From Sphaerolaimus hirsutus (Eukaryota > Nematoda > Chromadorea > Monhysterida > Sphaerolaimidae): 64,000 bases of DNA. The position numbers and the translations under genes are program-made. Positions 20,131-46,140 of the stretch are shown here, piece by piece. Position 1 is the first letter of the stretch, and the number at the start of each line of letters is the position of its first letter. The notes under the pieces are model-generated. The model saw only the letters and a list, made by a program, of their open reading frames with translations. It made no database searches and was not told the origin of the DNA. Where the stretch lies: assembly GCA_964036195.1 (NCBI GenBank), contig OZ038452.1, forward strand, positions 11,898,704 to 11,962,703. The letters are read 5' to 3'.

Positions 20131-20181
20131 CATAGCGCCATCGATGTACCGTTCTATGGTAATTCGCACTGAATCACCGTC

Positions 20182-20199
20182 CCAGAGACGTAGGTCTGG
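20182..20199 (-). other. Shared-loop hairpin 1 (3' LTR)
   Basis: Inner stem CCAGA/TCTGG, loop GACGTAGG (+ reading). Outer stems ATCACC/GGTGAT and an 11-bp pair CTATGGTAATT/AATTACCATAG; the whole fold spans about 20131-20247. Repeated in the 5' LTR at 45879-45896. Confidence 0.85.
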
Positions 20200-20389
20200 C
20201 ACTTTGGTGATCTGGCGCCAATTACCATAGCTGGCGTCCACTGCGCCGTAAGTCTCCTACAAGTTAGGTTTCATATAGGGCGACGTCGAAATGACGTCAC
20301 TTGGTCTAAGGATGGCCCGTGTGGCATTTCAGGCGGCTAAAGCGCCATAATTAGGGTTTGGTAGCGTTAATTGACGCTGGGTCACCATC

Positions 20390-20407
20390 CCAGAGACATA
20401 GGTCTGG
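20390..20407 (-). other. Shared-loop hairpin 2 (3' LTR)
   Basis: Inner stem CCAGA/TCTGG with variant loop GACATAGG; outer stem GGGTCACCA/TGGTGGCCC. Repeated at 46087-46104. Confidence 0.8.
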
Positions 20408-20490
20408 CACTTTGGTGGCCCGCCGTCGATTCTCGCATTACATACTATACCGACCTTTTGAGCGCTGGCTCAGCGCGAACAGGCATCACA

Positions 20491-21956: not shown

Positions 21957-22513
21957 CTGTGCACAAAAAATGTTCCGTTAAAGTTTCAAGGAAAAACATG
22001 AGGAAATTTTGGAAAAAACATGAAGATTGAAGTGAAATTGAACTAAACTGTTTTTCACTAATATGGCCATTGTGTGGCTGCAAGAATTTGTTCCCAGCCA
22101 TAACCAGCAAAAATTATTGGTGATTACTTTAAATGTGGGAAGCAAAAAGTCTTTATCCAGGTGGCTGTTTAAAAGAAAGTGTTCAAGGTCACTGGAGTTT
22201 TAAAGGAAAACTGTGTGCACAAGATTCCATGAGTCCAGTCCCAAACCATTACACAATGACCGGGGGGCCGTCCTGACATTTCTCAATACACATGTAAAGC
22301 CAGGGCCCCTCCTTAATGCGACCACGCGGTTTAATTTAAGCACAAATTTAATCAAATGCGAAAAAAATAGCATAGCGTTACAAGAAACTAAAGTAATTGC
22401 CCGCAGCGATATTAAATGCGCTTGAAGTAAATCTGCTAAAGAGCGGCTAAAAATACGCAATAACAAGAAATGCGAGATTCGCGCTGCCTCTGGGTCCAGG
22501 CCACGGGATAGTC

Positions 22514-22531
22514 CCAGGGACGTAGGCTTGG
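22514..22531 (-). other. Shared-loop hairpin 4
   Basis: Inner stem CCAGG/CTTGG, loop GACGTAGG; outer GGG/CCC and CCAGG/CCTGG. Confidence 0.8.
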
Positions 22532-22654
22532 CACTTTAACCCCTCAACCTGGCCCTCAGAGACGTGACGCTAAAAATATGTGCAAAGTTGCAGTCAAAAA
22601 TATAACATTTCCTTTTATTTAAAAGAGTTAGGTGGGTGTGTATCGGTACCAACC

Positions 22655-22672
22655 CCAAGGACGTAGGCTTGG
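22655..22672 (-). other. Shared-loop hairpin 5
   Basis: Inner stem CCAAG/CTTGG, loop GACGTAGG; outer arms of GTGTGT/ACACAC type with internal bulges. Confidence 0.8.
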
Positions 22673-22942
22673 CGCTTTAGGTCCCAACCCACACACACCG
22701 CACTCCCACAAATTACTACCCATCACACAAGAATAAAAATGGCAACTCAAAATGGCGAGAACAAGGGAAAAAGTCCCAAAACTGCAGGAGAATTGACAGA
22801 AAAATGCGCGAAATGGGGAAATACAATTTCCAATTACAACAAAATAGTGACATAACTGTTGAATCCTGAGGTTGCTAATTTATTTCCTGAGATAGCTTAG
22901 GCCCGTTTTACGCACCACCACGCTACACGACTGGTGACAATC

Positions 22943-22960
22943 CCAAGGACGTAGGCTTGG
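22943..22960 (-). other. Shared-loop hairpin 6
   Basis: Inner stem CCAAG/CTTGG, loop GACGTAGG; outer stem CTGGTG/CACCAG. Confidence 0.85.
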
Positions 22961-23140
22961 CATTTTAGGCACCAGGCCGCATTGCGAAGTGACACTGTTT
23001 CCGAAGAATAATTGATTACCATTGTTGGTTTCAAGGCATTTGGTTGAATTGCGCAATCCAGTGGGGTTAAAGGACGAAACAAATGATTGTCAATTTGAAA
23101 AAGACCAGCAATGCCGTGCCGTGTGCCACCAGTGACAGTC

Positions 23141-23158
23141 CCAGGGACGTAGGCTTGG
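23141..23158 (-). other. Shared-loop hairpin 7
   Basis: Inner stem CCAGG/CTTGG, loop GACGTAGG; outer stem GTGCCA/TGGCAC with further pairing inside. Confidence 0.85.
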
Positions 23159-23260
23159 CACTTTAGCCACCGATGGCACATTACACAGTAAAGCTGTCAA
23201 TAAGGGTATAATATCCTGGCTTGGTAGAGAGGGTTTGGTGTGTGTGTGTCGATGCCAACC

Positions 23261-23278
23261 CCAAGGACGTAGGCTTGG
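23261..23278 (-). other. Shared-loop hairpin 8
   Basis: Duplicate of hairpin 5: inner stem CCAAG/CTTGG, loop GACGTAGG; outer GTGTGT.../...ACACA arms. Confidence 0.8.
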
Positions 23279-23544
23279 CGCTTTAGGTTCCAACGCACAC
23301 ATACCGCGCCCGTATAAATTATTACTCATCACACCAAACATAAAAATGGCAGCTCAACATTGACAAGAATAGGGGAAAAACCCCAAATGCGGAAGAAATT
23401 GCAGCAACATGCATAAAAATGAAGAATAAAATCGTAAACGAGGCAGACGGTGTGACTATTACATCCTGAGATCATTTAATTTTATTCCCTGGGAATAATT
23501 GAACCCATTCTACGCACCACAACGCTACACGGCTGGCGACAATC

Positions 23545-23562
23545 CCAAGGGCGTAGGCTTGG
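23545..23562 (-). other. Shared-loop hairpin 9
   Basis: Duplicate of hairpin 6 with variant loop GGCGTAGG; inner stem CCAAG/CTTGG, outer CTGG/CCAG. Confidence 0.78.
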
Positions 23563-23737
23563 CATTTTAGGCACCAGACCGCATTGCGAGGTGGCACTGT
23601 CTAAAAATGAACAATTACAGTTGTTGGCTTCAGGTTGCTTGGTTGAATTCCGCGACCGAAGAAATTTTAAGGGCGAAACGAGTGATCTCAAGTTGAAAAG
23701 GCCAGCAATACCATGCCGTGTGCCACCAGTGACAGTC

Positions 23738-23755
23738 CCAGGGACGTAGGCTTGG
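23738..23755 (-). other. Shared-loop hairpin 10
   Basis: Duplicate of hairpin 7: inner stem CCAGG/CTTGG, loop GACGTAGG; outer arms GTGCC...GTGAC / GTCAC...GGCAC. Confidence 0.85.
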
Positions 23756-23844
23756 CACTTTAGTCACCGACGGCACATTACACAATAAAGCTGTCAGTAA
23801 GGGTATACTATTCGGGCGACTATGCGGCTGGCCTTAGAATAATC

Positions 23845-23862
23845 CCAGGGACGTAGGCTTGG
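23845..23862 (-). other. Shared-loop hairpin 11
   Basis: Six-pair inner stem CCCAGG/CTTGGG, loop GACGTAGG; outer CTGG/CCAG and CTATG/CATAG. Confidence 0.78.
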
Positions 23863-24020
23863 GACTTTAATTCACCAGTCAGTCATCATAGCGCACAGGC
23901 AATGCAAGAGAAAGGAGCCCTTTTGTTTCAGAAATAAGTAGCGTTCGAAGATTGCACAACTGTGTGAGGCATTATAACAGTACCTCGTCAGTACGTCGCC
24001 ACGCAGTGCTGGGGGCAATC

Positions 24021-24038
24021 CCAGAGACGTAGGTCTGG
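24021..24038 (-). other. Shared-loop hairpin 12
   Basis: Inner stem CCAGA/TCTGG, loop GACGTAGG; outer TGGGG/CCCCA and GTG/CAC. Confidence 0.85.
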
Positions 24039-24128
24039 CACTTTAGACCCCAACACCGCATTGCGTCGTCATGACAAGGATAACTGCGTAGTTAAATTTC
24101 AAGAATCTGGCATCGCCATTGGATAATC

Positions 24129-24146
24129 CCAGGGACGTAGGCTTGG
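24129..24146 (-). other. Shared-loop hairpin 13
   Basis: Inner stem CCCAGG/CTTGGG, loop GACGTAGG; outer GGAT/ATCC and GCC/GGC. Confidence 0.82.
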
Positions 24147-24266
24147 GACTTTAATCCTCCGGCTTGATAAGCTCACATAACAGTATAACATTTGCCATCA
24201 ACACAGTTGCCAAAAATACAATCGATCAGACATCGAGGAGTTGGGTGTATTTGCGCCGGGACAATC

Positions 24267-24284
24267 CCAAGGACGTAGGCTTGG
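24267..24284 (-). other. Shared-loop hairpin 14 (just after the ORF3 stop)
   Basis: Inner stem CCAAG/CTTGG, loop GACGTAGG; outer GGGAC/GTCCC and GGTGTAT/ATACACC, all perfect. Confidence 0.9.
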
Positions 24285-24334
24285 CACTTTAGTCCCAACG
24301 CCCATACACCGCGCTCCCCTGTGTCTGGTAGGTG

Positions 24335-27300
24335 CTACTTGGTACGAGCCTGGCGCAGGCGATGCATCCTGCGAGTTGCCTTGTTTGCGCCTCGCGGCCC
24401 ACTGGGTTCACGCTCGATTATTGCGAGCTGCGGAATGGGACGCCGGCCCAACGCCACTTGCTGTTTAGTCAATATACGTGGGTCTTGACCTTCAGCGAAA
24501 GGAACGGTCAAAATGGTCACCGGGGCGGCGCCAGGGGCGTAGCGCCCAACCGCATCACACCGAGCAATTTCATTCAGCAGGGCAGTGGGCAGCGGCCGGA
24601 CTGGCGCTGGGCGCTGAACAGCGCCCTTACACTTTGCCAAGATTGACACCACCAATTCATTCAGACTCAGGACGGGCCACGGCCGTTGGGCAGCCCCACG
24701 GGCCAATTGTCCCGCCATTGCCATATGCAACCGGCCTAACCAGTTGGCACCCCACGATTCTACTTTCGTCCAGAGAACAGGGCTGGTCATACCTTGCCCA
24801 ATACCCCAAAACGGGTCATACGGGCTTGCCTCAATAAACACCGTATCCGGGTTATTTGCCAGGGTGTCTCGATAGGCGGGGCAGGTCGCCAATTTGAGTC
24901 GCAAGACAGCGTGCATGGTTGCGACGGCGAGGCCGCATTCGTGCCACTCCCGCTGTCTTACTCTCCACCTGGCGATCGTACCCGCCCTACGCCAGGCCGT
25001 CATCTGACGCTTGCAGTCAGCGGGGTCGGAGTGTTGGAGAAGGGGTACGATTAAGTCGTGATCCCCGCTAAAAATCAGCTGCAAAACTTGATACAAGTGC
25101 TCGGATGACGGTACATGCAAATCACCCATCAACGGAATTTGGGCGCGAAAAAAGTTCCCCAGCGGACTGTCTCCGGAGAAGAATAGATACACGTGGTGGC
25201 GGTCAATCGATATAGTACCCTTGCCTGCGTGCACTCTCGGCCTTATCAGACCGCGACTATCGTCCAATGCGAGCAGGCGGAGGATATTCAACCGAAAGTC
25301 CAGCCAACGGCCTAGCGCCGTCTGCAGAGTGGACTGCAGAACAAGGTCGGAGGATCCCTTACTGGTGGCGCACAAAATTTTGGCGCGCAACAAGAATCTT
25401 GTGAACACGTCCTGAGTCTCGCGTAGCCTCAACCGCAGCTGGTCCAGGGACTCGTGGCGGAACTGGTCCTGCCACCTAGTCCAGCTTGCCGGTGCACCCG
25501 GGAAGCGTACGCGATACTCCGCCCATTCTTCGTTCGAAAGTACGAGCACCCGCAGGAGCTCCCATTGGTTGCGCCATGAAGTCAACCAGTTGAGGATGCA
25601 CCTAGTCAGCGACGAGTTTGCCCCAGTGCTGAAGTACTTATGACCTATTGGCAAGGTGGGACGTACCTGCGCCGGATGGGGGAAAACACTCGGCGGGACC
25701 GGCACTTCGAAATTCTTGTCCGGTCCGCCGTCCTCAAACTCGTCGAGAAAGTGAATCAGACTGCGCCCCACCGTCGGAACGTAGTTGAATTCATCCAAAC
25801 TGTGACTCATCAGCATCTCAGTATAGAGAGGGCGGAGCGGAAGGGGTACGTTCTGCACGTGCACCCGTTCCCAGCCGGGTGTATAGGTACCTTCCGGCCG
25901 GAGCCACTCGCTCATGGGTCGTCTCAACGGGTGTTGCGGGGACCAACCTGGGTCGTAGTGCCCGCGTGTCCTCGCGATAGCCTGCAGCCGGGCGAGCTCA
26001 GCCTCCCCAAAGGCCTTATTCAGCCAGTGGTCCGGCTGGTCGTCCAGGGGCCCAGCGACTGGGACGCCCACATTACTCACCAGTTGCAATTCTTCTTCTT
26101 CTACGTTGAAGAATGGGCGGACATCTACTCCCCGGACCGTCGCTGCAATGTACTGCTGGAACAACCCTAGCAATGCGTCAACATGTGACGGTGTCAGGTC
26201 CTCATACCGCTGCGCCATTGGATACCAAGCCTCCCGGCGCCAAACGTGAATCGCACGACCCTCAACGGGCCTATTGTAGTAAAAGTAGGGGATGCTATTC
26301 TCGATACCCAGCACCAAGTCCGTGTCAAAAGTGATATATTTCGCCTGGCGGTCGCGGAACCAACGCAGCGCCTGCTCGCAAGTAGGAAAACTGTTCTCAG
26401 GTAGTCTAATCGAGGCGACTTGGATTTCCCCGCCGGGTTGAACAAAGGCGGCCGGAGGAACGTACTCGTCGCGTACCGGAATCGGGCCGAGGTTGTCAAA
26501 GGGGCCCTCTCCTACCTCAGGGACATGGTACGCCTCCGGCTCGAGGGGCTCGACCAAACCGAAAGAGGACCACACCGCCGTGCCGGAGAAACCCAGCGCC
26601 TGCAATCTCTCCGTCCCTCTTGCGTAGTCGTGGCTAAGCAATGTCCTCGCCGTAACACGAATCGTCTCATCAATTTCGTGTTCGGACACTTCTTTCGCGA
26701 GTTGGTTGCATACCGGTTGGAGGGGTACGATGCGTAGTCTATAGGCGCCCTCGGCCCGGTTCGCTGCCTCCACTTCTTGGAGCCAGTCGTCCGGGACGTG
26801 GTCGGCCGAGACACCCGCATCGGACGCCCCCCCCTCGGCAGCGATCTCCATTGGGAGCGCAATTTCTAACGGTCCCGCTTCACTAGCGGCGGCCGAGGAC
26901 ATCCCTTCGTCCACAGACTCATTAGGGCCGAGGATGTGCCGGCGGGGGTCATCCGGGCCCGGCAGAGCGCGGGGTTCGACCAAACCGAAATCCCAGGTAC
27001 ACACACCCGACTCTAATCGCTGGACGGGGCGCGTGTGCGGGTCGAAGAAAGGGTCAACGAGGCGGTTGGGCGCAGAAGAGTATCGTGCGTCCCGGAACCC
27101 CTCAACGTCCTCCACGGTGGCGTTCTCGTCGAAGTAGCTGTTAAGCCAAGTGCGAACGGGGTTAGGGTCACGAGCCTCTCGCGACTGGATTTCCTCCTGG
27201 GGCGACGCATTTGCGTCCCCATAGGTGCGCAGGCGCTGAACCCACTGATCCGCGTTGTGGATCACATCAAACCTTGCCGGTACGGGGCAGGCCGCCAGGG

Positions 27301-32105: not shown

Positions 32106-32123
32106 CCAGGGACGTAGGCTTGG
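32106..32123 (-). other. Shared-loop hairpin 15
   Basis: Inner stem CCCAGG/CTTGGG, loop GACGTAGG; outer CCC/GGG and GCTGATGA/TCATCAGC, all perfect. Confidence 0.9.
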
Positions 32124-36000: not shown

Positions 36001-39000
36001 TTGGCAATGCAAAACAGTCACGCTTGGTCACTAAGTTCACACGACGGTAATCGACGCATAATCGCAGCGCGCCATTTTTCTTACGCACCGGGACAATCGG
36101 GGATGCCCAAGGAGACACTGACGGCTCGATTATCCCTAATTTCAGCCACAGCTGCACTTGGCGTTCAACTTCCTTACGTAACCCGATAGCTAATCTACGG
36201 ACTTTCTGTTGGATCGGGGGGGAGTTTCCAGTTTCGATAGGGTGGTAAATTATATCGCCTGTGTCTCCCATATCAAAATCGGACAGTGAAAAGATGTGAT
36301 GGCGTTCTAATAGCCATTCACGCAACACCTGTTGCTTTTCCAAGGGGAGGTGACTAAGTACTCCTTCGTCCAGAATTTTCCCAAGCTGATGCAATCGAGT
36401 CTCAGGGGGTGATTGGGCGGTAATTACGGGGTCCTCAGGGGGTTCTACATGCGTGGAAGCCAAGTTGGCTTCACAGAGAGCCTTACACAGAGGTGTCTGC
36501 ACTGTTTGCCACCACACATCGGCAAATTCAACTGCGAGTTCGTTCATATGGAAGTCATTAGTCGGTTCAACCACTACCTCTTCGGCCCAGCCAAGAGACT
36601 GGCAGGCAAATAAGACCATCTCCTTATCCGAATGGTTTGCAAAGGGGACAAAGAGCTCATTCCCGTTCTCTAATGGTAGCAAGGTGTTTTCGAAATTTTC
36701 GGAGAAGTGTGCATGTGGGCTGAAAAGAACCGTGGTGAGTATCTCCTGGGGATCACCTGTCAACTCAGCGGGCACATAAGACACAGAGCGCGGTGGGCAT
36801 ACCCAGTTTTCCGTTGCAACAACCCCAACCGCGCCGGTGCCCTTACTTGGCGAAAAATAGGGAACCGGTGACGAAGAGCAAAGCCTATTTACATCTGTTT
36901 TCGGGGTCAAATACGGCTCTAAAAGTGATCCTACAGTGTAAATATTGCTAGATTGAACTCGTTCAATTGCTTCTGGGATATTTTCACCTGATCTTGCAAT
37001 GGCGCCTGTACGTAACCCGGTGTCTACGTAGGGGATTTCCCCTTCATAGAGCAAACAAGGTTCATCGCCCGGGATGAGATACCGTTTATTGCTGTGCATA
37101 ACCGGTCGAGTCATACAAGCGCCAGGACAAATAGGTAGGAACCAAAATTTAGCATAATCACCAATACCTATAATGCACTGAGTGCCTTCAAAGGAAATTG
37201 CGAAGTTTATGCGTCGTGTTTCCGTACCGATCGAGACTGTCAATTGGATCGAGTACAGTAACGTATGTTTATGTCCTGTATAGCCTTTACAAACAAGGGG
37301 TTTTTCCAATTGAAAGATTCGACGGTCTAAACATTTCCCTGAAAGGCTCTCAATTTGCTCTAATAAAGACACGGGAATGGCACTTAATTCTGCGCCAGTA
37401 TCAGCTAATACTAAATAGGGTCCTACACCTTGGATTACGGCGCGGTGGTAAATACTAGGTGTAATTAAATCGCGCACAGTGTGCTTTGGACGCGTCATTT
37501 TGCCACTTTGCAAGCGAGCACCCAATGGTTCGGTTACTACCACTTGTGCGGCATTACATTGGTATTCCATGCGCTTAACACCTAAATCCGGGGAGAGTTG
37601 TTCCCAATAGTATTTCCTACGGTCACGACAAGTTTCTCGGCCAGCATCCGAAGTGCTGAGATCTAGGGCGGCAACTACAGACGTGTGTGTCGCGGGGTTG
37701 ATAGGACGAAACATATTAATAGATGGTGTCCAGGTAGACGTTTGTGTTTGTACTTGCGCACTTTTTGGACTACTCAGTACTACATGCTCCAGGTCATCAG
37801 TGCTCGCGATATCACGAATCCCAGGGACGTAGGCTTGGGACTTTTGCGTGGTTACCGCGAGGGCTGAGGTCTGGTCAGGTTCGCAAGATTGAATGCGAAT
37901 TTCCGGAATACTTAGGTGTGGAATCGAATCGCAAACATGATCGACCTGGGGAACACCAGTCAAGGTTTTACAGAAGCTTACAGTGGGTCTCCTACCAGTC
38001 ACTGAGTCACTGAGCGCGCGTGCCGTCCCAGGGACGTAGGCCTGGCACTTTGGCGCGGCGCCCTTTGGCTCAGTGGTAGACGTGTCCACCCACTGCGTAA
38101 CGCAAACGTCAAAATAACTTATTGGAGTTGAGTCAGAATGGTTATAAAGTTCTGGACAGGAACCCAGAAAGTTTACACGCACGTCGTTCTCCTCTTCGGC
38201 TAATGCGTCTGTCTCTGGTGGTACCATATCCGAGTAATCATATTGGTACTGATGCATGGTTTCCGAAGGGTATTCGTTATAATAGCCTTGCAAGTCGTTA
38301 GGGTCTGCTACCCCATCAACTAAATCATCTTGCAAATCAGTGTAACCAATTTGATCGTCAGGTATGATATCATACTGTGCGTACAGTTCATTGACATTCT
38401 GCGCAGGCGTGTTTTCGGGACACTCACGCGAGAAATGGCCAGGCTTATTGCACTTAAAACACTTAAGTGGCTCACGCGGCGTTTGGGCTGGTGCAGGGCC
38501 AGATGAAGTAGGGCCGGTTGCACGACGACCACACTCTTCAGTGGTATGGCCGGACATTTTACATTTGTCGCAAAAATAGCTCTTATAAGCATTGGGAGGC
38601 TGTCGACCGGGCTTGTCAATAGCTACCACAGGTGGCCCTACATCAACTGTTGGACGCGGAGCAAAGCGCGGGCCTTGTACGGCAGGAGGTAGACGCATAG
38701 GCGGAATATCCCGTTGCGGTCTAAACGGCATGCGCTGTGCATTGAACGGGGGTTGAGCACTAGGCTGCGCTTGTGGCGGAGGGAAAGCAAATCGCGGGTT
38801 TTGGCGCATATCCATCGGTGGTCGAAACATTGGCCGTTGGCCAGCTAGCATACCGCCACCCAACTGCTGACGGTTATCGCCCATGCGTGCACTAGACATT
38901 TGCTGCCGCAGTTGCGAGAGTTCATCGCGCATGCGCTTAAACTCAGTATCCTTAGCTGAGCGGTCTTGCTCGAGCTTACGGTTTTCCAAGGACTGTTGAG

Positions 39001-39094
39001 CGACTTTGGCATGCTGGATCAGCTTGTCGAAAGACTCAAGTGCAGCAGAGTTTAACTCCACTAATTGACGCAACTCAGAGTTATGCTGACCCAT
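33083..39094 (-). CDS. pol: ORF2: Gag nucleocapsid-Pol polyprotein, 2003 residues
   Basis: Gypsy-type polyprotein. In order: N-terminus MGQ (possible myristoylation site) and a short coiled coil to about residue 65; a Pro/Arg/Gln-rich linker; two CCHC knuckles near residues 175-190 and 210-225; an acidic and variable linker; retropepsin with DTGAE near 565; reverse transcriptase about 940-1180 with YLDD (instead of YVDD) near 1113; RNase H with HTDAS near 1257; integrase with an HHCC zinc region near 1600 and catalytic D, D and E near 1664, 1722 and 1758 with 35 residues between the last two; a GPY-type motif near 1898. No capsid domain is evident, so ORF1 may supply it. The start ATG overlaps the end of ORF1 by 34 nt; a stop lies 9 nt upstream in the ORF2 frame, so fusion by -1 frameshift is unlikely and re-initiation is more likely. 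Two shared-loop hairpins lie inside. Confidence 0.93.
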   Translation of the reverse strand: MGQHNSELRQLVELNSAALESFDKLIQHAKVAQQSLENRKLEQDRSAKDTEFKRMRDELSQLRQQMSSARMGDNRQQLGGGMLAGQRPMFRPPMDMRQNPRFAFPPPQAQPSAQPPFNAQRMPFRPQRDIPPMRLPPAVQGPRFAPRPTVDVGPPVVAIDKPGRQPPNAYKSYFCDKCKMSGHTTEECGRRATGPTSSGPAPAQTPREPLKCFKCNKPGHFSRECPENTPAQNVNELYAQYDIIPDDQIGYTDLQDDLVDGVADPNDLQGYYNEYPSETMHQYQYDYSDMVPPETDALAEEENDVRVNFLGSCPELYNHSDSTPISYFDVCVTQWVDTSTTEPKGAAPKCQAYVPGTARALSDSVTGRRPTVSFCKTLTGVPQVDHVCDSIPHLSIPEIRIQSCEPDQTSALAVTTQKSQAYVPGIRDIASTDDLEHVVLSSPKSAQVQTQTSTWTPSINMFRPINPATHTSVVAALDLSTSDAGRETCRDRRKYYWEQLSPDLGVKRMEYQCNAAQVVVTEPLGARLQSGKMTRPKHTVRDLITPSIYHRAVIQGVGPYLVLADTGAELSAIPVSLLEQIESLSGKCLDRRIFQLEKPLVCKGYTGHKHTLLYSIQLTVSIGTETRRINFAISFEGTQCIIGIGDYAKFWFLPICPGACMTRPVMHSNKRYLIPGDEPCLLYEGEIPYVDTGLRTGAIARSGENIPEAIERVQSSNIYTVGSLLEPYLTPKTDVNRLCSSSPVPYFSPSKGTGAVGVVATENWVCPPRSVSYVPAELTGDPQEILTTVLFSPHAHFSENFENTLLPLENGNELFVPFANHSDKEMVLFACQSLGWAEEVVVEPTNDFHMNELAVEFADVWWQTVQTPLCKALCEANLASTHVEPPEDPVITAQSPPETRLHQLGKILDEGVLSHLPLEKQQVLREWLLERHHIFSLSDFDMGDTGDIIYHPIETGNSPPIQQKVRRLAIGLRKEVERQVQLWLKLGIIEPSVSPWASPIVPVRKKNGALRLCVDYRRVNLVTKRDCFALPNCADLIDMAGLVHPQYFSSLDLASGYLQMRIDPRDIPKTAFTSHVGLFQYKFMPFGLVNAPASFSRLIANVLAGLDPDRVHFYLDDVLVCAETEERMYSLLDDVFARFDRYTLKVGIKKCEFFKERVNFLGCVLTREGIEMQQSKITTIQNYPVPVTTKEIRRFLGMCSFYRRWVEGFSFITRPLHLKIQGAKTTWDDECQAAFEELKKRLVEGPILAYPKEGRPFILHTDASRSGLGAVLSQMDDAGRHRVVAYGSCALKGAEKRYNTTELECLAIVWSLKYWKHYLTQQEVIIVTDHRTLTWALENRSENPRLDKWYVFLMAYQPKIIFKRGSENSVADALSRIAESVNFHKWTEDHLQGKFDPEEVPAGICPLSTFTDKWQAHPLNQPEPDLSEYSAVEITKISDEIHYEWHPPLGVGHIQSLDNIPHPANQDRTPKANTPSIFEAKSTPIERFNMTGKDVDVIRDAGLTIDGIVGSTLESVAEETQKFWQRIIKGQEDDPDTQSIKLFLTTRQYTKHARFNTWLDRNYTGFCVAHDVLWFMGNASRRACLVVPIEITSELCERFHSWGHPAGLKLSMWLRIYFWWFTLTMDAHRAVDKCLECATRTGQGRKRLNPLTPISVVAEPFFRIHMDVLKMPMSQNGYQYVLVLQDAFTKYPCAYALRLKDAETVAYHFMQFVSDHGVPRVLVTDNGSEFCNAILHGLTQFWGTDHRKTTVYRPQANALVERFNRTLLDMLAKMCTLRPTDWDEWLAPALYWYRAIPHASTGESPHFLATGRDMPLPGDTSFLETSQLVYNEHPKYHERTIQYTREAWKIAKELIDLAQAQQKVQYDKKCKPLTFEVGQRVWYLAEGVVTGPAYKLARPYIGPYRILELKGKTAKIKRIDQCDAAAIRVNLDKLLPVKDSVASGAIWTGRALRKVREVPLESELPTHDVSGEKADAGVTPGDKPLSDDGMVLRSGNRVRANSK
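37821..37838 (-). other. Shared-loop hairpin 16 (inside ORF2)
   Basis: Inner stem CCCAGG/CTTGGG, loop GACGTAGG; outer CACG/CGTG and CTCGCG/CGCGAG. Read in ORF2 as KSQAYVPGI. Confidence 0.88.
38028..38045 (-). other. Shared-loop hairpin 17 (inside ORF2)
   Basis: Fully Watson-Crick inner stem CCAGG/CCTGG, loop GACGTAGG; outer GCGC/GCGC and CACTGAG/CTCAGTG. Read in ORF2 as KCQAYVPGT. Confidence 0.9.
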
Positions 39095-42000
39095 GCTGAC
39101 TTAAGTTGATCTAGAGCCGAAGTGGGTGCTACAGAAGAGCTGGGGTGTGCTGGTGGAACCGAGAGCCTACCGGTGTGCTGGTGTCCCGTATGATATAATC
39201 GCTGGGGCGCCTGCACAGCGGCGGGCACAGGGGCTCCACCAGCCGAATCAGGCTGCTGATAACCCTGGTGCGACAACAGAAAGTCGTATTGGTTGTCCCG
39301 CGTTCCTACATCATCCGGCTGAATCATATCTACGTTAGCATCATAGCTGCCACTATTCGTTACCCGGACCATCTGTGAGTGAGCGTTTTGAGCGGTAGGC
39401 AACTGTAAGCGACGGCGAGAATGCTCGAAGCGATTATTTCGGTCAATTGGAAGCATCGGAGTAGTGTGCACGGGCACCGCCCCGTATCGTCGTGCCAACT
39501 TATTGTAGTTAGCCCCAACTTGTGTGTAATCGCGACGGGCATCACTAGCCAACTTATACAAAAAGCGGCCATTAATATGGTACTGTTCGGGTAGCGGATA
39601 GGTGTCTGTTATGCCTACCGTTTCACCATGCTTAATAGAGCGATCAAGCGTGTCAACAAGCTTTTGCACAAGGAAGGCGCAGCGCTGAAATGCAGTGAGT
39701 AAGCTATCCGGGAACCAGCCATAACGAAACACGAGTTGAAAAATGTATTCAGACTCAAAATACGCGGCGATCAACAACTTAGAATACGCGCGCACGAGAT
39801 CGGTGTTCCGTGGATCAATGATGGCCCAGGGTGTGTCCATAATACCGACTGTAGGCAGAATACGACCGACCCAAGTGGTTTTGACATCCAGCTCAGCCAC
39901 TGGGCCAACAGAGAACTCCGGCCCTACAGGTTCTACCCAAGCGTGCATGGATAAGTCAGTCAGTACAATGCGCGGCGGGTCAGTTTGCACTTTGATAGAA
40001 GGATCAGGCGGCCACTGATGTGTCGCCAAGCGCCGCATAGGATCGGGGCTCATTAGATGGGCTACTAAGACATTATTCCAGGCGGGGGGTAAAGTTGAAA
40101 TGCTACGGTTCAACGGGGTAGTATACATTGATGGTTGGTGCGCACTCTGGTGTGGCTCGAGTACTCTCGAAGGTTGTGGTTTGGGTGTCGGAACAGGGGT
40201 TTTTCCACGCAACTGGTGTAGCCAGTCTAATCCAAAACCAATATTGTTCAGCAGATTCTGACACACCAACCGACATTTCTGGGGGGTACACCTGTCTGAG
40301 ACCCGACCGATATGCATTACACAGAGGGCATTGTACTGCGCAAAATCCAAATTCTCTAAGCGGCACAAGAGGTCCCGGGCAGAGTCCAGGGTATTACCAA
40401 GATGTGCCAGTAATTCTTTCCTTGTCTTACGAGCAACAGGGCCATTAACTTGGCGCTTAATCTCAGGTAATATATCCGCAAACGCATGGTTGAGGCGAAT
40501 GCCTTCAGCTATGCACCCATGAAATTGTGCCATAGCGTACCGAGCTGTTTCTGGCAAGGTGCCAAGCAATGGCATGTACGTGCTAAATCCGGTTCGGTGC
40601 ACATCGAGGTAAACCCAGGCTTCTGTCAAACTACGCAGAGCTGCAGCGCGCACTGTTTGGGATACTCCCTTATTTTCTAGGCCAAAAACACCAGCCGTTG
40701 ATTTCGACTGAATCTGAGAACGAAGGGTAGTCCAATCCCTTGCTGACTGTGCAGAAACGAGCAAAACGGATTGCACAAACGCAAGTGCACACTGAACGGG
40801 GTAGGCGCGTGACTGTGGGCGCGCGGGGCCAGGGTCTGACGCTGCCAGTACTTGCTGGTTCACTTGTCTCTGAGCCAGCGTGGACACATCCACGGGGGGC
40901 TTAGTTAGGGCATTCGCATCAGCACAAAAGTTACTCAGTAGGGACTGTAAATCACCCGCTAGGGAGTCAACCCGGGGTTTCAAGTGAACACTTAGAGTAC
41001 GGTCAATGGAGTCTTGCAGGGATCCACGGAATGGCAACATTGCCTGTGACCACGTTCGGAGGGTCATCAGGGCCGAGGTAACATTATCCAGAGTGGTTTG
41101 CTGGGATGGGTCAGAAGGTGTCACAGTGGCAAGGTCAAACAATAGCTGGTCTAACTTATTTATCTCGGGATCAAGTTCGCTTAGAAGTTTTTCAAAGGGT
41201 TGTAACACATCCCCAATGCACTGATCTGAGGGTTTCAGGTGATCCCATAATTTAGTAGGTTCACATGCTTGTTGCAAGGGGGAAATCATAGTATCAATCT
41301 CTGATTGGTTATTCGTCAGTAATTCTCGATGTTGTCTTACCAGCCCAGTGAAGGGTTGGGGTTGAGGGCTATTAACGGGGTTAGAAGGTGGTGGTTTCAC
41401 GGGGGTGCTTAGGTCACAGACAGAGGTGGGGGGTCTGCTAGGAGATTGAATGCTCAAGCAGGGGGAACTAGTAGCGTGAGGGAATTCTTCGTCGGGTCGT
41501 CTTAACACTGTATCCCGGGACTCGTTGACATATGACATCCCTGGCTCAGCGGTATATGCTGGGGTGGCCAGGTCAGACATCCGGCCCCGAGAACCCACAG
41601 AATCGCCAACATCACTACACGTAACGCCATGGCGGCTAGTACTGGCCCATTGACCGACAGGGCGCGCGCGTTCCCTACCGTCTAGCTCAAAGAAGCTTTG
41701 CTGGTTAGAATTGCCGCGGCGGCGAGTAACCACGCCCAGGGATGAATTATACTGCAACATATTAATATCCGCGGCATGAACCATGTAATTCTCATTGGCA
41801 TCTGGCGTCGTGTGTGCTCCACTCAGTGCAGCGGGGTCGGCCATATAATCGTCAATAATTTCAAAAGAATTGAGTGAGTCCTCAATGAACACTGTTTGAA
41901 ACGATTGGGCTGCAGACAAGGTAGTGGAGCACACATGTTCCAAAGCCACATCCGTGTCACAAGTAGAGTCATCTAGAGTACTAGACTGGCTAGCTGCCAA

Positions 42001-43704
42001 GTCAACACTGTGCTCGAATTGACCGTGACCCACAATCCCAGAGACGTCGGTCTGGCATTTTAGTGAGTCACTGTCAATTGAAGCATGCGATGACAAGCTC
42101 CATTCAGTTGAAAACTCAAAGTCATCAGAAGACCCTGATGCACCACCATCAGCTGGCAAATACGAATACTGGCCAGCTGCCAATTCCACATCATGCTCGA
42201 ATTGACATTGGTCCACAATCCCAGAGACGTAGGTCTGGCATTTTAGTGAATCACTATCAATTGAAGCACATGATGACGAGCTTAGTACAGTTGATTGCTC
42301 AGAATCGTCAAAGGACCATGGTGCACCATCGTCAACTGACAAATATAAGTATTGATAGTCAAACGAGTCATAAGAGTAGTCAGTGGTCACGTATTTTTCA
42401 CATGATTGACATAGCTCTGGCTCAACATCAAAAGTTTCGAGAGTTTTGAATTGACAATTGACTGACGCGGGACATGAAAGGTTTTTCGGAAATTTCAAAA
42501 TTCGCATCAAAAATCGCCGCCAGGGCATGGTGTATCGTAGTTTCTCAAATTTGGAAATTTGACTCTGGTGCATCATGAGTGGGGCAGTGTGCCAAGAAAT
42601 CAAACGGTAATAAGCGCGTGATACACATTTCAAACGTTCAAAACGCTTACGCAAAAGCCAACATTTGTGGTTCCAGTATGTGCACGGTAGCATAGGGCTA
42701 AGCTGAAACACTACGCCCTGTACGCGTGGAGGGTGGCTATGTGTGCTGTGTGAAGGGGGGGTAAAAGGGGGGTGCAACACGGTGCCGTGACCCGAGGTGG
42801 GACCTCCAATATAATAAAGTGACCCCCCGGGTACTGCAACTTCACTTCTGATCCCATTATGGGCCAAATAGCAACACCTTGGACAGTGTCCAATTCCGTC
42901 AGAACTTTCAACGATGCGCTCATGCAGTCCATCCTGCCTAATTACGCCAAATGTACAGCACCTAACAGGGGACTTGGTTACCTTTTGCACGTGTGGAACG
43001 ACAAACGATGGCAACACGCCAACTAGATAATCGCACAACTCTGATAATTCAACGAGTGGCATGATGTCCACCGGACGATCAACAATTGCCCTACAAGCCC
43101 TACGCTTGCCGCGTGCGCGGGAACCCTGCCTGCCAAACTTCACCAGCTTGGTGCCTTTCGACCTAGCTACTCCGAAGGACGTAGGCTTCTGAGCTTTTCG
43201 GTCTACTTGGTTGCCACAGCTAACAAAGTCCGGTCGCGCAAATTGCAAAAGCTTGCGGCGGATAACGTGCGGCTGTAATTTCCCTCTCTTACCCACCAAA
43301 TACCAAAGGTTTCTAGGCTGCACAGTTTTCTTCAGCCTTTCAGCGGTTTTCTCAAAAACGCCACAAATTCCGGGCTCAATAAAAGTCGGCCCTATGATCA
43401 AGTGATCAAGCAACCACTGCTGAGAAGCATCGCAAATCACTTCGCCATTGGGCAAAACAGAATCAACAACGAAATCACCAGCGCCCTGAACCTTTTCCGC
43501 ATACGTGGCCCTTCGCTGAATTTGAAACATTTCCGACACGGGCTCAAAACTATCCAAAACAGGGCCCATTTCCAAATTATCAACCTCCCAGAAACCTTCA
43601 GAACTTGGCGCACTTCCAGAAACAGAAACAAGATTTGCCCACGCTTCGAAAACCGACAATTCAACCTTATTTGAATGCAAGCAAACAAAAGCGACTTCCA
43701 TCAT
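39061..43704 (-). CDS. ORF1: 1547-residue protein, first gene of the giant element
   Basis: Unbroken from ATG at 43704 to the stop at 39061. I do not recognise a domain. Visible parts: a basic region near residues 180-220 (RARGKRRACR); a Cys/His cluster near 265-280 (HCPRCCYLAH) that may bind zinc; an acidic Ser/Asp-rich region about 430-640 that contains an in-frame 61-residue duplication carrying hairpins 18 and 19; a Ser/Pro-rich linker; a long helical part about 830-1450; and a Pro/Gln-rich tail. Its place before a gag-pol frame that has knuckles but no evident capsid suggests it provides the structural Gag function (inference). It overlaps ORF2 by 34 nt. Confidence 0.75.
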   Translation of the reverse strand: MMEVAFVCLHSNKVELSVFEAWANLVSVSGSAPSSEGFWEVDNLEMGPVLDSFEPVSEMFQIQRRATYAEKVQGAGDFVVDSVLPNGEVICDASQQWLLDHLIIGPTFIEPGICGVFEKTAERLKKTVQPRNLWYLVGKRGKLQPHVIRRKLLQFARPDFVSCGNQVDRKAQKPTSFGVARSKGTKLVKFGRQGSRARGKRRACRAIVDRPVDIMPLVELSELCDYLVGVLPSFVVPHVQKVTKSPVRCCTFGVIRQDGLHERIVESSDGIGHCPRCCYLAHNGIRSEVAVPGGSLYYIGGPTSGHGTVLHPPFTPPSHSTHSHPPRVQGVVFQLSPMLPCTYWNHKCWLLRKRFERLKCVSRAYYRLISWHTAPLMMHQSQISKFEKLRYTMPWRRFLMRILKFPKNLSCPASVNCQFKTLETFDVEPELCQSCEKYVTTDYSYDSFDYQYLYLSVDDGAPWSFDDSEQSTVLSSSSCASIDSDSLKCQTYVSGIVDQCQFEHDVELAAGQYSYLPADGGASGSSDDFEFSTEWSLSSHASIDSDSLKCQTDVSGIVGHGQFEHSVDLAASQSSTLDDSTCDTDVALEHVCSTTLSAAQSFQTVFIEDSLNSFEIIDDYMADPAALSGAHTTPDANENYMVHAADINMLQYNSSLGVVTRRRGNSNQQSFFELDGRERARPVGQWASTSRHGVTCSDVGDSVGSRGRMSDLATPAYTAEPGMSYVNESRDTVLRRPDEEFPHATSSPCLSIQSPSRPPTSVCDLSTPVKPPPSNPVNSPQPQPFTGLVRQHRELLTNNQSEIDTMISPLQQACEPTKLWDHLKPSDQCIGDVLQPFEKLLSELDPEINKLDQLLFDLATVTPSDPSQQTTLDNVTSALMTLRTWSQAMLPFRGSLQDSIDRTLSVHLKPRVDSLAGDLQSLLSNFCADANALTKPPVDVSTLAQRQVNQQVLAASDPGPARPQSRAYPVQCALAFVQSVLLVSAQSARDWTTLRSQIQSKSTAGVFGLENKGVSQTVRAAALRSLTEAWVYLDVHRTGFSTYMPLLGTLPETARYAMAQFHGCIAEGIRLNHAFADILPEIKRQVNGPVARKTRKELLAHLGNTLDSARDLLCRLENLDFAQYNALCVMHIGRVSDRCTPQKCRLVCQNLLNNIGFGLDWLHQLRGKTPVPTPKPQPSRVLEPHQSAHQPSMYTTPLNRSISTLPPAWNNVLVAHLMSPDPMRRLATHQWPPDPSIKVQTDPPRIVLTDLSMHAWVEPVGPEFSVGPVAELDVKTTWVGRILPTVGIMDTPWAIIDPRNTDLVRAYSKLLIAAYFESEYIFQLVFRYGWFPDSLLTAFQRCAFLVQKLVDTLDRSIKHGETVGITDTYPLPEQYHINGRFLYKLASDARRDYTQVGANYNKLARRYGAVPVHTTPMLPIDRNNRFEHSRRRLQLPTAQNAHSQMVRVTNSGSYDANVDMIQPDDVGTRDNQYDFLLSHQGYQQPDSAGGAPVPAAVQAPQRLYHTGHQHTGRLSVPPAHPSSSVAPTSALDQLKSAWVSITLSCVN
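42038..42055 (-). other. Shared-loop hairpin 18 (inside ORF1)
   Basis: Inner stem CCAGA/TCTGG, variant loop GACGTCGG; outer GTGAC-CAC/GTG-GTCAC and TTGAC/GTCAA. Read in ORF1 as KCQTDVSGI. Confidence 0.85.
42221..42238 (-). other. Shared-loop hairpin 19 (inside ORF1)
   Basis: Inner stem CCAGA/TCTGG, loop GACGTAGG; outer arms AATTGA/TCAATT and TGCT/AGCA with further pairing. Read in ORF1 as KCQTYVSGI; 183 nt from hairpin 18. Confidence 0.82.
43174..43189 (-). other. Shared-loop hairpin 20 (inside ORF1, other frame)
   Basis: Inner stem changed to GAAG/CTTC with the same loop GACGTAGG; next pair block CTC/GAG, outer GACC/GGTC. The loop is read as KPTSFG, a different frame from hairpins 16-19. 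Confidence 0.75.
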
Positions 43705-45827
43705 GATTCACAAATTAGAATTAGAATTAATTAGATCCACTAGCTGGAATGAGCCAATAGACTAAGTAGAGAATTAGTTGCACCAGAGTAAGCTTGAATT
43801 ACACTAATTGGGTTTCTCGAATAACGTTTGCAAATAAAGTTTCCAAAGTATTTAAATATTTCCAATTTACCTTTCCACTTTCCAAATCAAAACATTAACA
43901 TAAAAAATGACTAAATAACACTCAGGGTCATATAAGTTAAACCAAACAGGTGAGGATAGCAGTACGATGCACTGGTAAGAGACCACACAAGACCAGGTAC
44001 TTAAGTCCTAGCTTGGCACAGCACCACTATCAAAAGTAATCTACAACGACGTAGCACAACTGTTTGGGCCCTTACGAAAGCCTAGAGCGAGTCAATAGGT
44101 GTACAGCCTACTTCAGCTTATACTACGCCTAAAACAAGTCCACAGAGGTCCAGACGTACAGTAAGCATCACAGATGGTGGGTTCTCCCCATACAACACCC
44201 TATCTTAGCTATACCGGCAGCTCCGTGTGGCCACTCCTGCCCCTGTGAACCTAAATGTCACCGTGCAGAGGGAAGAGAAGGCCTATGCCAGAGTTAGCAG
44301 AGAATGAATAACCAAGGGTAGGCTCATTTCAGCTGGTAAATCACTGACTTAGTAATTAGGATTGGATTGAATAGACTGATGACAATCACAAGATTGGGGC
44401 TCTCTTTTATGGGTTTGAAGTGCCCAAAACTGGTTTGCAGCTGGGCGGAGCCAACCAATCACGAGAGTGCATTCAAAAATGTACCGAAAATAAGTGACTT
44501 CAGTTGAACAGAGCCATGTTACCACAAGGGTTACTTTTTTAATGGAACAAAGGGAATGGTGACTTGACATTCAGGAACACCTTTCTTCTGGCACTCAGCC
44601 AGCTAAAACCAAACCTGGAACTGTGCCAAACTAGAAGATAAAAATACCTACAGTAACCTACCGAATGTAAACGCACAAACTAACTGCTTAAAGTGACTAA
44701 ACTGAGCGAGACTCTCAAACTAAGCGTGATTCAATTAAAAACATACCAAGTAAATGCACAGCTACTCGAACTGCAAACACAAACAAAAGGGACCAAAAAA
44801 ACGCAAAACAACCGTAATTTTTGCTCAAACGTGAGCGCGTCCAAAACCAGCGTACCAATCGGCCGACGTGAAGCTAAACACAAAATGCAAAAGTGCAAAA
44901 CACAGAAATAAGTGCAAAACATAGAAACACGTGCGAAACACAGAAACAAATGCGAACGTAAAAATACAATCACAAACACATGCAATTATCACAAACTAAG
45001 GGGGGTTAGGTGGGTAATTAAGTGCAAATAAATACATATACATACGTAATAAATCACATACCGCGGCACCTACCGCGAACCTACAACCTAAGCCTACCTA
45101 CAACCTACAAAATCACAAAACTCCTCCCTGTGGCAGCAGTGGCTACGGGATATGCGCCAAACTACACACAAAAACTGCCCTTTTGGCATTCTTCCAACTT
45201 CTTTTACTAATTTTTAACCTAAGGCACATATCCCTCCAGAAGGGTTGACCCGTCTCTACTCCGAAGGGCGTAGGCTTCAGGAGCTATCGGGGCCCTCCCT
45301 TCCGGTGGCCACTCCCACCAAGAACTCTGAGCGGCCGAAGTCTGTCGCTCCGCGGACGTTTCCGGCGGCCAACGCTGTCGACGCTCACGGGGACTGGATA
45401 GGGGGTGAATTTACAAGTTTCGAACGATAAACTGTCGCCACAGTACGGCGACAGCGCCTAGCCCCCCTCAAAATACGTCTGGTGCCATTTTCGGGAAGTT
45501 GGCACTCGGCCAAAAGTGGCCGACTCGCACTTTCACGAAAGTTCCCAAAATGACCCAAAATCCCCTTCTCCCGGGTTCCGGCGGTCGGCGGGTGTCGGAT
45601 GGCGGCGGCGCGGCGCTGTCGCGGCCGTCGAAGTCGTTCGCCGGCGCTCGTTCGACCGTCACACTCGGGAGACACAGTTTTAACTCGGCGCTGCTTTTCT
45701 TTTTAGTGAAAGCGCCGTAACTATCGCAAAAGTTAGGTTTCGTTCCCGGAGGTGCCAAATGACGTCACCCGGGCTTTTCACGACTAGAAACGGCTAATTA
45801 GGCCGTTTTGCTACTCAAGGCCGGCGG
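43705..45827 (-). other. Leader of the giant element
   Basis: About 2.1 kb without a coding block, between the 5' LTR and ORF1. The part 45300-45760 is GC-rich and may still be LTR or U5/leader; it holds hairpin 21 and a second TGACGTCA (45757-45764) in a context similar to the LTR (aagttaggtttc ... aaatgacgtcac). No tRNA-complementary primer site was recognised. Confidence 0.5.
45263..45278 (-). other. Shared-loop hairpin 21 (leader)
   Basis: Inner stem GAAG/CTTC, loop GGCGTAGG; adjoining CTCC/GGAG pairs. Same stem variant as hairpin 20. Confidence 0.75.
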
Positions 45828-46140
45828 CATAGCGCCATCGATGTACCGTTCTATGGTAATTCGCACTGAATCACCGTCCCAGAGACGTAGGTCTGGCACT
45901 TTGGTGATCTGGCGCCAATTACCATAGCTGGCGTCCACTGCGCCGTAAGTCTCCTACAAGTTAGGTTTCATATAGGGCGACGTCGAAATGACGTCACTTG
46001 GTCTAAGGATGGCCCGTGTGGCATTTCAGGCGGCTAAAGCGCCATAATTAGGGTTTGGTAGCGTTAATTGACGCTGGGTCACCATCCCAGAGACATAGGT
46101 CTGGCACTTTGGTGGCCCGCCGTCGATTCTCGCATTACAT
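45828..46140 (-). repeat. 5' LTR of the giant element (outer end missing)
   Basis: By eye identical over 313 bp to 20131-20443, including both hairpins (cores 45879-45896 and 46087-46104), the TGACGTCA site and TATA-like box. The first 47 or so bases expected from the 3' LTR (TGTGATGCC start) are absent and replaced by a minisatellite. Confidence 0.85.

What the first reader, a model, noticed from the sequence alone, without database searches (positions are those of the whole stretch)
20131..46140. A dispersed family of at least 21 covarying hairpins with one shared loop in a giant retroelement
Each has an 8-base loop (usually GACGTAGG on +), an inner stem in several compensated forms (CCAAG/CTTGG, CCAGA/TCTGG, CCAGG/CCTGG, GAAG/CTTC), a fixed asymmetric bulge (CACTTTAG or CATTTTAG opposite ATCC), and outer stems unlike each other but self-complementary, up to 11 bp. 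All point the same way, so one RNA strand is probably the functional one. I saw none outside 20131-46140. Multiple copies with a constant loop recall dispersed packaging signals bound by a coat protein; dimer contacts, translation control or RNA processing are other options.
Basis: partly seen in the sequence, partly recalled or inferred. Interest (0 to 1): 0.95.

Follow-up and report, generated by a model that had tools for sequence, protein, structure and literature searches.

The report
Repeated RNA hairpins in giant retrotransposon
A 26-kilobase jumping gene carries about twenty copies of one RNA hairpin, scattered along its length and kept almost unchanged at the tip, which looks like a set of docking sites by which a protein recognises the element's own RNA.

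Summary
A covariance model of 19 distinct sites finds 21 hairpins in the window (E <= 2.3e-12), all on the minus strand and inside a 26.0-kb Ty3/gypsy-type LTR element (20130-46126) whose genes run on that strand; nothing outside it reaches E 0.5. Two divergent relatives (43178, 45267) share the loop. Core in the presumed sense RNA: UAA 5' bulge, 3 bp, G.G, 5 bp, octaloop CCUACGUC, on a rod of 20-30 layers of unrelated sequence.

The window's own genome (348 Mb) was reachable. The core pattern occurs 577 times (reversed control 0); the places I checked are copies of this element. Most sites recur in register in the copies fetched. In coding sequence, third codon positions vary at 5 of 70 core sites against 573 of 2019 elsewhere: the constraint is on nucleic acid. 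Paired arm columns vary less than unpaired ones (34 of 582 against 46 of 247).

Best reading: a multivalent protein-docking signal on the element's RNA, most likely for packaging; host-mediated export or translation is a close rival. No partner protein was identified. G.U counts lean to the sense strand without proving it.

The parts
20130..20429 (-). 3' LTR (in coding sense), 300 bp, identical to the other LTR; carries two hairpins
45827..46126 (-). 5' LTR (in coding sense), 300 bp; carries two hairpins
39061..43704 (-). ORF1, 1547 aa, gag position, no Pfam match
33083..39094 (-). ORF2, 2003 aa: CCHC knuckle (Pfam) and a second one read by eye, DTG protease motif read by eye, RT, RNase H, integrase
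24335..31156 (-). ORF3, 2273 aa, NADAR domain at residues 2012-2147
20165..20216 (-). hairpin core, 3' LTR
   Evidence: 58.5 bits
20373..20424 (-). hairpin core, 3' LTR
   Evidence: 60.6 bits
21138..21189 (-). hairpin core, 3' UTR; present in 12 of 12 fetched 3' loci
22497..22548 (-). hairpin core, 3' UTR; 11 of 12 fetched 3' loci
22638..22689 (-). hairpin core, 3' UTR, paralogue of 23244-23295
22926..22977 (-). hairpin core, 3' UTR, paralogue of 23528-23579
23124..23175 (-). hairpin core, 3' UTR, paralogue of 23721-23772
23244..23295 (-). hairpin core, 3' UTR
23528..23579 (-). hairpin core, 3' UTR
23721..23772 (-). hairpin core, 3' UTR
23828..23879 (-). hairpin core, 3' UTR; 11 of 12 fetched 3' loci
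24004..24055 (-). hairpin core, 3' UTR; 11 of 12 fetched 3' loci
24112..24163 (-). hairpin core, 3' UTR; 11 of 12 fetched 3' loci
24250..24301 (-). hairpin core, 3' UTR; 11 of 12 fetched 3' loci
32089..32140 (-). hairpin core between ORF2 and ORF3; present in 10 of 10 fetched middle stretches (these were chosen by a pattern match at this place)
37804..37855 (-). hairpin core inside ORF2; 10 of 10 fetched 5' loci
38011..38062 (-). hairpin core inside ORF2; 10 of 10 fetched 5' loci
42021..42072 (-). hairpin core inside ORF1; 10 of 10 fetched 5' loci
42204..42255 (-). hairpin core inside ORF1; 10 of 10 fetched 5' loci
43166..43197 (-). divergent (type B) hairpin inside ORF1, borders approximate: same loop, 4+4 bp, purine mismatch, A-rich bulge
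   Evidence: (E 0.017)
45256..45287 (-). divergent (type B) hairpin in the 5' leader, borders approximate, loop CCUACGCC
   Evidence: (E 0.35)
45862..45913 (-). hairpin core, 5' LTR
46070..46121 (-). hairpin core, 5' LTR

Best explanation
A 26-kb Ty3/gypsy-type LTR retrotransposon carries a dispersed cis-acting RNA hairpin in about 20 copies per element: 2 per LTR, 12 in the 3' UTR of the window's copy (about 9-10 in the others fetched), 1 between ORF2 and ORF3, 2 in ORF2, 2 in ORF1, plus 2 divergent ones near the 5' end. Each presents the same surface to a trans-acting RNA-binding protein: octaloop CCUACGYC, and unpaired adenines in a 5' bulge nine layers below (8 pairs and one mismatch). The sequence-free rod underneath insulates that tip from the rest of a 26-kb RNA. 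I commit to a packaging and assembly role: several copies of an element-encoded gag/nucleocapsid-type protein dock on these sites, so that the element's own RNA is recognised and condensed into the particle. Shown: the hairpins as conserved self-complementary sequence, their conservation in register across copies, constraint on nucleic acid rather than protein, confinement to this element as far as checked. Inferred: that the sense RNA is the acting strand, that a protein is the partner, that packaging is the output.
For: 21 members, one strand, one element, none outside. Genome: core pattern 295 + 282 matches, reversed control 0 + 0; with the loop left free, 315 + 316 matches, control 4 + 3, and the 100 places listed all carry CCTACGTC or a variant differing at 1-3 positions (the other 531 are not shown). 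ORF and type B sites in 10 of 10 fetched 5' loci; six 3' UTR sites in 11-12 of 12 fetched 3' loci. Third codon positions in cores 5 of 70 variable against 573 of 2019, p 2.9e-5, while first and second positions are not more conserved than elsewhere. Paired arm columns with shared variants 34 of 582, unpaired in the rod 46 of 247, outside 245 of 1128. In a 600-bp internal duplication the cores match at 97 of 99 sites; gap columns are 6 of 326 in rods and 45 of 290 in linkers. MS2 packaging signals are described as sharing a (x)xYA loop and an A in the 5' bulge (PMC6281560, passages); here the loop holds U-A and the bulge is adenine-rich on the 5' side. The coding region has a CCHC knuckle and a second one by eye.
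Against: No partner is known and ORF1 has no recognisable domain. 14 of 19 distinct sites sit in the 3' UTR and LTR, where retroviral export and translation elements also sit, whereas retroviral packaging signals usually lie near the 5' end (recalled). Strand: G.U against A.C is 83:48 over the arms, but swapped arms already give 1.43:1, and a test per site group gives p 0.11. Among copies, double changes in the first 22 arm layers are few (5, all Watson-Crick, against 68 single changes). With whole arms and core stems counted, single changes to A.C (65) were nearly as common as to G.U (73), and 56 broke the pair otherwise. Arms at coding sites, outside the core, show no third-position conservation (14 of 60 against 573 of 2019). 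Six middle 3' UTR sites are matched in only 5-9 of 12 loci, and the LTR site 45884 in 10 of 12 and 8 of 10.
Confidence: 0.4

Rival explanations
1. Nuclear export, stability or translation element: a host factor (such as an export receptor) binds the hairpins, and the array makes a very long unspliced RNA export or translate well.
For: 12 of the 19 distinct sites lie in the 3' UTR and 2 more in the LTR. Multiple copies of the M-PMV CTE act additively where one is weak (PMC4829213, passages); three repeated stem-loops in the Sindbis 3' UTR confer translation in insect cells (PMC4709744, passages).
Against: Sites also lie inside ORF1 and ORF2 and are kept in 10 of 10 fetched 5' loci. Confinement to one element family, as far as checked, is less expected if a common host protein is the partner. 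No match to any Rfam family.
Confidence: 0.32
2. DNA-level signal: the motif works in the double-stranded or cDNA form, e.g. as a cruciform or in strand transfer or integration.
For: Two copies per LTR near both LTR ends. G.U is not clearly preferred to A.C.
Against: One orientation at all 21 places. Static G.U to A.C in the first 22 layers is 48:22, though p is 0.11 against the swapped-arm ratio, and shared changes lean to G.U (19:11) while private ones do not (10:19, p 0.038). Sense strand folds more stably at 15 of 21 sites.
Confidence: 0.1
3. RNA-RNA contact: kissing loops that dimerise or compact the genomic RNA.
For: The loop contains the palindrome ACGU; many copies on one RNA.
Against: Loops CCTACGCC (46 of 206) and CCTATGTC (10 of 206) lose the palindrome, and type B at 45267 has CCTACGCC in the window itself. 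The loop's complement GACGTAGG is absent from the sense strand of the window.
Confidence: 0.07
4. Processing substrates: the rods are cut by a Dicer-like or Drosha-like enzyme, giving small RNAs, or buffer host silencing.
For: Long imperfect rods, z down to -6.9.
Against: Arms have unrelated sequences and only the tip is conserved, the reverse of microRNA families (recalled).
Confidence: 0.06
5. Passive repeat: the core spreads by duplication or gene conversion inside the element and has no function.
For: Clear internal duplications (600 bp in the 3' UTR, 183 bp in ORF1).
Against: Conservation of third codon positions, of paired columns, and of register across copies; arms of a site pair with each other better than with arms of unrelated sites (mean 32.2 against 13.4).
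Confidence: 0.03

Closest known systems
Dispersed packaging signals of ssRNA viruses (MS2 TR-type stem-loops; PS-mediated assembly)
   Same: Many stem-loops along one RNA with a shared tip: pyrimidine-A in the loop and unpaired A in a 5' bulge (PMC6281560, passages).
   Different: Here an LTR retroelement; an 8-nt loop, a 3-nt bulge nine layers below it, far stricter sequence identity (recalled for MS2), and clustering in the 3' UTR; binding untested.
M-PMV constitutive transport element and related retroviral export elements (RRE)
   Same: Structured cis-acting RNA of a retroelement; multiple copies act additively (PMC4829213, passages).
   Different: Conserved tip rather than a pair of internal loops (CTE architecture recalled); about 20 copies spread over 26 kb; no Rfam match.
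Repeated sequence elements of alphavirus 3' UTRs (Sindbis)
   Same: Serial stem-loops in a 3' UTR that act on translation (PMC4709744, passages).
   Different: Three copies there, about 20 here, also in coding sequence and LTRs.
Giant gypsy-like LTR elements (Burro of planarians; Ogre of plants)
   Same: Gypsy-type pol and extra open reading frames; Burro also has an internal region of up to 25 kb (PMC6431247, passages).
   Different: Short 300-bp LTRs, NADAR-bearing ORF3; Ogre owes its size mostly to long LTRs (same passages). The passages read name no hairpin array.
Ectocarpus Gypsy lineage with a NADAR domain
   Same: A NADAR domain in a Gypsy element (PMC12477816, passages).
   Different: [quoted passage not shown] here at the C-terminus of a separate 2273-aa ORF3 downstream of pol.

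Membership tests
Ty3/gypsy-type LTR retrotransposon | RT, RNase H, integrase in this order, with a protease motif upstream | tested here: met
   Pfam RVT_1 1003-1164, RNase H 1255-1356, rve 1660-1754; best PDB match is Ty3 Gag-Pol, E 1.4e-93; DTGA motif read by eye
Ty3/gypsy-type LTR retrotransposon | Long terminal direct repeats | tested here: met
   300 bp, 100% identical
Ty3/gypsy-type LTR retrotransposon | Target-site duplication | tested here: inconclusive
   No match seen by eye at the two flanks
Dispersed packaging signals (MS2 type) | Several dispersed stem-loops with a common tip motif on one RNA | tested here: met
Dispersed packaging signals (MS2 type) | Pyrimidine-A in the loop and A in the 5' bulge | tested here: met
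   Consensus UAA AGU G CCAAG CCUACGUC; definition from PMC6281560. Loop 8 nt and bulge 3 nt, so similar in kind, not the same hairpin; holds only if the sense strand is the acting one
Dispersed packaging signals (MS2 type) | Binding by the coat protein and effect on assembly | not testable with these tools
   needs the bench
CTE/RRE-type export element | Match to a described family in Rfam | tested here: not met
   No match up to E 1 in the element
CTE/RRE-type export element | Recruits an export receptor | not testable with these tools
   needs the bench
Self-cleaving ribozyme families held in Rfam | Match to a family model | tested here: not met
   No match up to E 1 in the element
microRNA precursor | Conserved arm sequence, free loop | tested here: not met
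   Conservation confined to the core: in 15 unrelated sites, apart from offsets -13 and +17 only 2 of 101 arm columns pass the 99% level

The most novel reading that the evidence does not exclude
A retrotransposon that assembles its 26-kb RNA by a serial code of about 20 near-identical docking hairpins, read by its own structural protein: an assembly mechanism described for RNA viruses, arrived at or retained in an LTR element, with a tip that matches no Rfam family.
Probability: 0.35. Interest if true: 0.92.

Novelty: new variant of a known kind. Interest (0 to 1): 0.8.

Why it matters
Retroelement packaging signals are usually hard to see in sequence (recalled). Here a strictly conserved hairpin occurs about 20 times per element, in coding and non-coding RNA, with natural variants and many genomic copies as a ready-made mutational series. 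If the hairpins bind a gag-type protein, they would make multi-site packaging in LTR elements directly testable; if they bind a host export or translation factor, they would show how a 26-kb RNA leaves the nucleus or is translated. Either way the tip could serve as a small RNA-protein tethering module.

Tried and rejected
Rfam, E up to 1: nothing in the element; the single weak match, at 62108-62238, lies outside it. Pattern scans: 0 places in viral contigs with the stricter pattern; with the looser one 1 place in viral contigs and 1 in prokaryotic genome contigs. I take both as chance: they match only model positions 18-36 of 52, at 12.4 bits (E 0.036; its inner stem can pair) and 6.3 bits (E 3.6). 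Relatives of the three proteins in viral contigs: none confirmed. Structure prediction of ORF1 residues 720-1260 from one sequence: mean pLDDT 41, not used. PDB sequence search with ORF1 and ORF3: best E 0.45 and 0.96, not meaningful. Pfam on ten flanking reading frames: nothing at E <= 1. Pfam on the ORF1/ORF2 junction of one other copy (L023): nothing above cut-off. Strand: a first count of 101 G.U to 57 A.C looked clear, but swapped arms showed that composition gives most of it. Changes between paralogues by a strand-neutral alignment: 12 G.U against 9 A.C, uninformative; an earlier count in which every changed pair stayed paired used a structure chosen to pair in both and is not relied on. 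A second conserved motif in the arms (AAU at offset -29 or -28 in 10 of 21 sites) did not pass the column test. Diverged element families: the pol search scored only 24 of 2332 candidates, all 99-100% identical, so deeper relatives were not reached. Papers: the listings of searches (20 of 26 listed) showed no description of such an array (46 and 108 returned no paper); two failed. The library is open-access only, so this is not proof of absence from print.

Rows left out of counts: the two type B sites from A1, A2 and model R1 and; site 32111 also from 89 and, for lack of fetched copies then, from 87. One search used 20 sites (19 plus 43178), 21 (19 plus both type B), 15 (one per unrelated group). 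Identical sequences were collapsed in 89 and 104. In 87 each hairpin was given to its best-matching window site, so paralogues in the 3' UTR may be mixed; the filter at score 20 removed none (lowest 22). L003-L010 were not analysed.
Full report
Setting. The window (G000:C3:11898704-11962703 of a 348.5-Mb assembly; host not named) holds an LTR element of 26.0 kb. Its LTRs, 20130-20429 and 45827-46126, are 300 bp and identical. Coding is on the minus strand: ORF1 43704-39061, ORF2 39094-33083 with a CCHC knuckle, RT, RNase H and integrase (a second knuckle and a DTG protease motif read by eye), and ORF3 31156-24335 with a C-terminal NADAR domain. The RT region is closest in PDB to Ty3. I call the minus strand 'sense'.

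The hairpin. In sense RNA the consensus core is C-UAA-AGU-G-CCAAG-CCUACGUC-CYUGG-G-AYU-G: a closing C-G pair, a 3-nt 5' bulge, 3 bp, a G.G mismatch (C-G at 4 of 19 sites), 5 bp and an 8-nt loop. A covariance model (19 distinct sites) finds 21 members at E <= 2.3e-12, all on the minus strand between 20165 and 46121; two divergent members at 43175 (E 0.017) and 45264 (E 0.35); nothing else under E 0.68 on either strand. Thus all lie in the element and point one way.

Is it a structure? On the 19 distinct sites 85.6% of 285 pair cells are standard against 70.4 +/- 1.7% in shuffles; the covariation score is 0.463 against 0.207 +/- 0.024, 0 of 500 shuffles as high; 10 of 15 pairs have changes on both sides, against 8.0 in shuffles (24 of 500 as high). 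Slid structures reach 29.5-49.5%. In a harsher comparison, arms of one site pair with each other (mean score 32.2) better than with arms of unrelated sites (mean 13.4, sd 6.4, n 372): 17 of 20 exceed the 95th percentile, 9 of 20 exceed all swaps. Pairing exceeds the swapped level in the first 20-30 layers only (0.69, 0.73, 0.55 against 0.50, 0.49, 0.45) and is at background beyond. Folding z-scores average -3.1 (sense) and -2.1 (antisense) over 21 sites, against -0.1 for 60 random windows of the element. Three main-type sites (24134, 23850, 21160) are weak on their own, z between -0.9 and 0.0 in the sense strand.

Is it constrained? Three tests. (1) Inside a 600-bp duplication of the 3' UTR, three hairpin cores match at 97 of 99 sites; gap columns are 6 of 326 in rods, 45 of 290 in linkers, p 2e-10; base identity of the whole rods (0.81, 0.88, 0.93) is equal to or above that of the linkers (0.80, 0.79). 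(2) In the five coding hairpins, third codon positions vary among ten other copies at 5 of 70 core sites against 573 of 2019 elsewhere, p 2.9e-5; first positions (6 of 70 against 189 of 2020) and second positions (11 of 70 against 149 of 2019) are not more conserved. The loop is read as Y-V in three coding hairpins, as D-V in the fourth (same frame, one-base loop change) and as P-T-S in the fifth, i.e. in two frames. (3) Across copies, variants shared by two or more sequences hit 34 of 582 paired arm columns (first 22 layers), 46 of 247 unpaired ones inside the rod and 245 of 1128 outside (p 5.9e-8 and 3.5e-19); core columns 15 of 522. Copies share ancestry, so these p-values are optimistic.

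Other copies. The pattern CCNNGGACGTAGGCNTGG occurs 295 + 282 times in the genome, reversed control 0 + 0; only the first 100 places are listed, all on contig C1. I fetched 12 3' stretches, 10 5' stretches and 10 middle stretches around listed places. The 22 outer stretches match the element by BLAST at 78-99%; the 10 middle ones carry the hairpin in the same flanks. The model finds 203 matches at E < 0.1 in the first 22 loci, default filters. By site: 24272, 24134, 24026, 23850 and 22519 in 11 of 12 3' loci (the twelfth, L022, lacks the inner 3' UTR), 21160 in 12 of 12; 42226, 42043, 38033, 37826 and both type B sites in 10 of 10 5' loci; LTR site 46092 in 12 of 12 and 9 of 10, 45884 in 10 of 12 and 8 of 10; the six sites 22660-23743 in 5-9 of 12, where the array differs between copies and paralogues are hard to tell apart. 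Places were chosen by a match to the hairpin, so presence at the matched sites is partly by choice; the other sites are not. With the loop left free, the pattern TAAARYGCCAR-N10-YTGGGRY gives 315 + 316 matches, control 4 + 3; the 100 listed places all carry CCTACGTC or a variant at 1-3 positions. The one listed singleton checked (C1:2829490) is the LTR and leader of a further, 83% identical copy. So this stem goes with this loop, and, as far as checked, only in this element.

Strand. Orientation, and folding energies at 15 of 21 sites, favour the sense RNA. G.U against A.C is 48:22 in the first 22 layers, but against the swapped-arm ratio of 1.43 this gives p 0.11. Shared changes among copies run 19 G.U to 11 A.C, private ones 10 to 19 (p 0.038). 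In the core the G.U position at 15-38 favours sense and the A.C position at 21-32 favours antisense. I therefore call the strand likely, not shown.

Results against strong arm selection. Counting whole arms and core stems, single changes among copies go to G.U 73, A.C 65, other mismatches 56, and double changes are few (17, of which 10 Watson-Crick). Many copies may be decaying. The arms are better protected near the core than far from it, and at coding sites the arms outside the core show no third-position conservation (14 of 60).

Mechanism. A fixed loop plus fixed unpaired adenines nine layers below, on a rod of free sequence, is what one expects of a site read by a protein, and it recalls the MS2 packaging signal (loop YA and 5' bulged A; PMC6281560, passages). 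Loop-loop contacts are unlikely, since common loop variants destroy the ACGU palindrome. Many sites on one RNA, including coding sequence, and confinement to one element fit an element-encoded reader, hence packaging (my first choice, 0.4). The bias to 3' UTR and LTR fits export, stability or translation about as well (0.32): CTE copies act additively (PMC4829213, passages) and repeated stem-loops in the Sindbis 3' UTR act on translation (PMC4709744, passages).

What is new. No Rfam family matches in the element; the listings of paper searches show nothing like it. Giant gypsy elements are known (Burro, Ogre; PMC6431247, passages), as is a NADAR domain in Ectocarpus Gypsy elements (PMC12477816, passages), but none of the passages read describes a serial hairpin. 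I file it as a new variant of a known kind: dispersed cis-acting RNA hairpins, here in an LTR element.

Limits. 

Noticed in passing
window 39093-39096: The window's copy lacks about 590 bp that 10 of 10 other fetched copies have at the ORF1/ORF2 junction. In the two looked at, the frame runs through over the part fetched, and 21 of 24 listed pol matches lie in open frames of 3734-3770 aa against 2005 here. The split into ORF1 and ORF2 is thus a feature of this copy. Described only.
   Followed up: partly
window 24335-31156, residues 2012-2147 of ORF3: NADAR domain (E 7.4e-14) at the end of a 2273-aa protein with no other Pfam match; NADAR domains are reported in Ectocarpus Gypsy elements and oyster Tx1 LINEs (PMC12477816, passages).
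   Followed up: partly
window 45990-45930 and 45770-45700 (minus strand): The LTR and the leader just after it both contain GTGACGTCATTT ... ACCTAACTT ... TTACGGCGC, as if a promoter-like block were present twice (read by eye).
   Followed up: no
window 46140-46320: A tandem repeat of a 24-bp unit abuts the 5' LTR.
   Followed up: no
window 20080-20130 and 46127-46180: No target-site duplication or purine-rich tract was seen by eye at the LTR borders.
   Followed up: no
window 13-2544 (+): A separate 843-aa open frame that looks gag/protease-like by eye; no Pfam match above cut-off.
   Followed up: no
window 42021-42255, 37804-38062, 20165-20424: Hairpins tend to come in pairs 107-208 nt apart (ORF1 183, ORF2 207, LTR 208, several in the 3' UTR; positions); the four ORF hairpins of the main type share one reading frame.
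   Followed up: no
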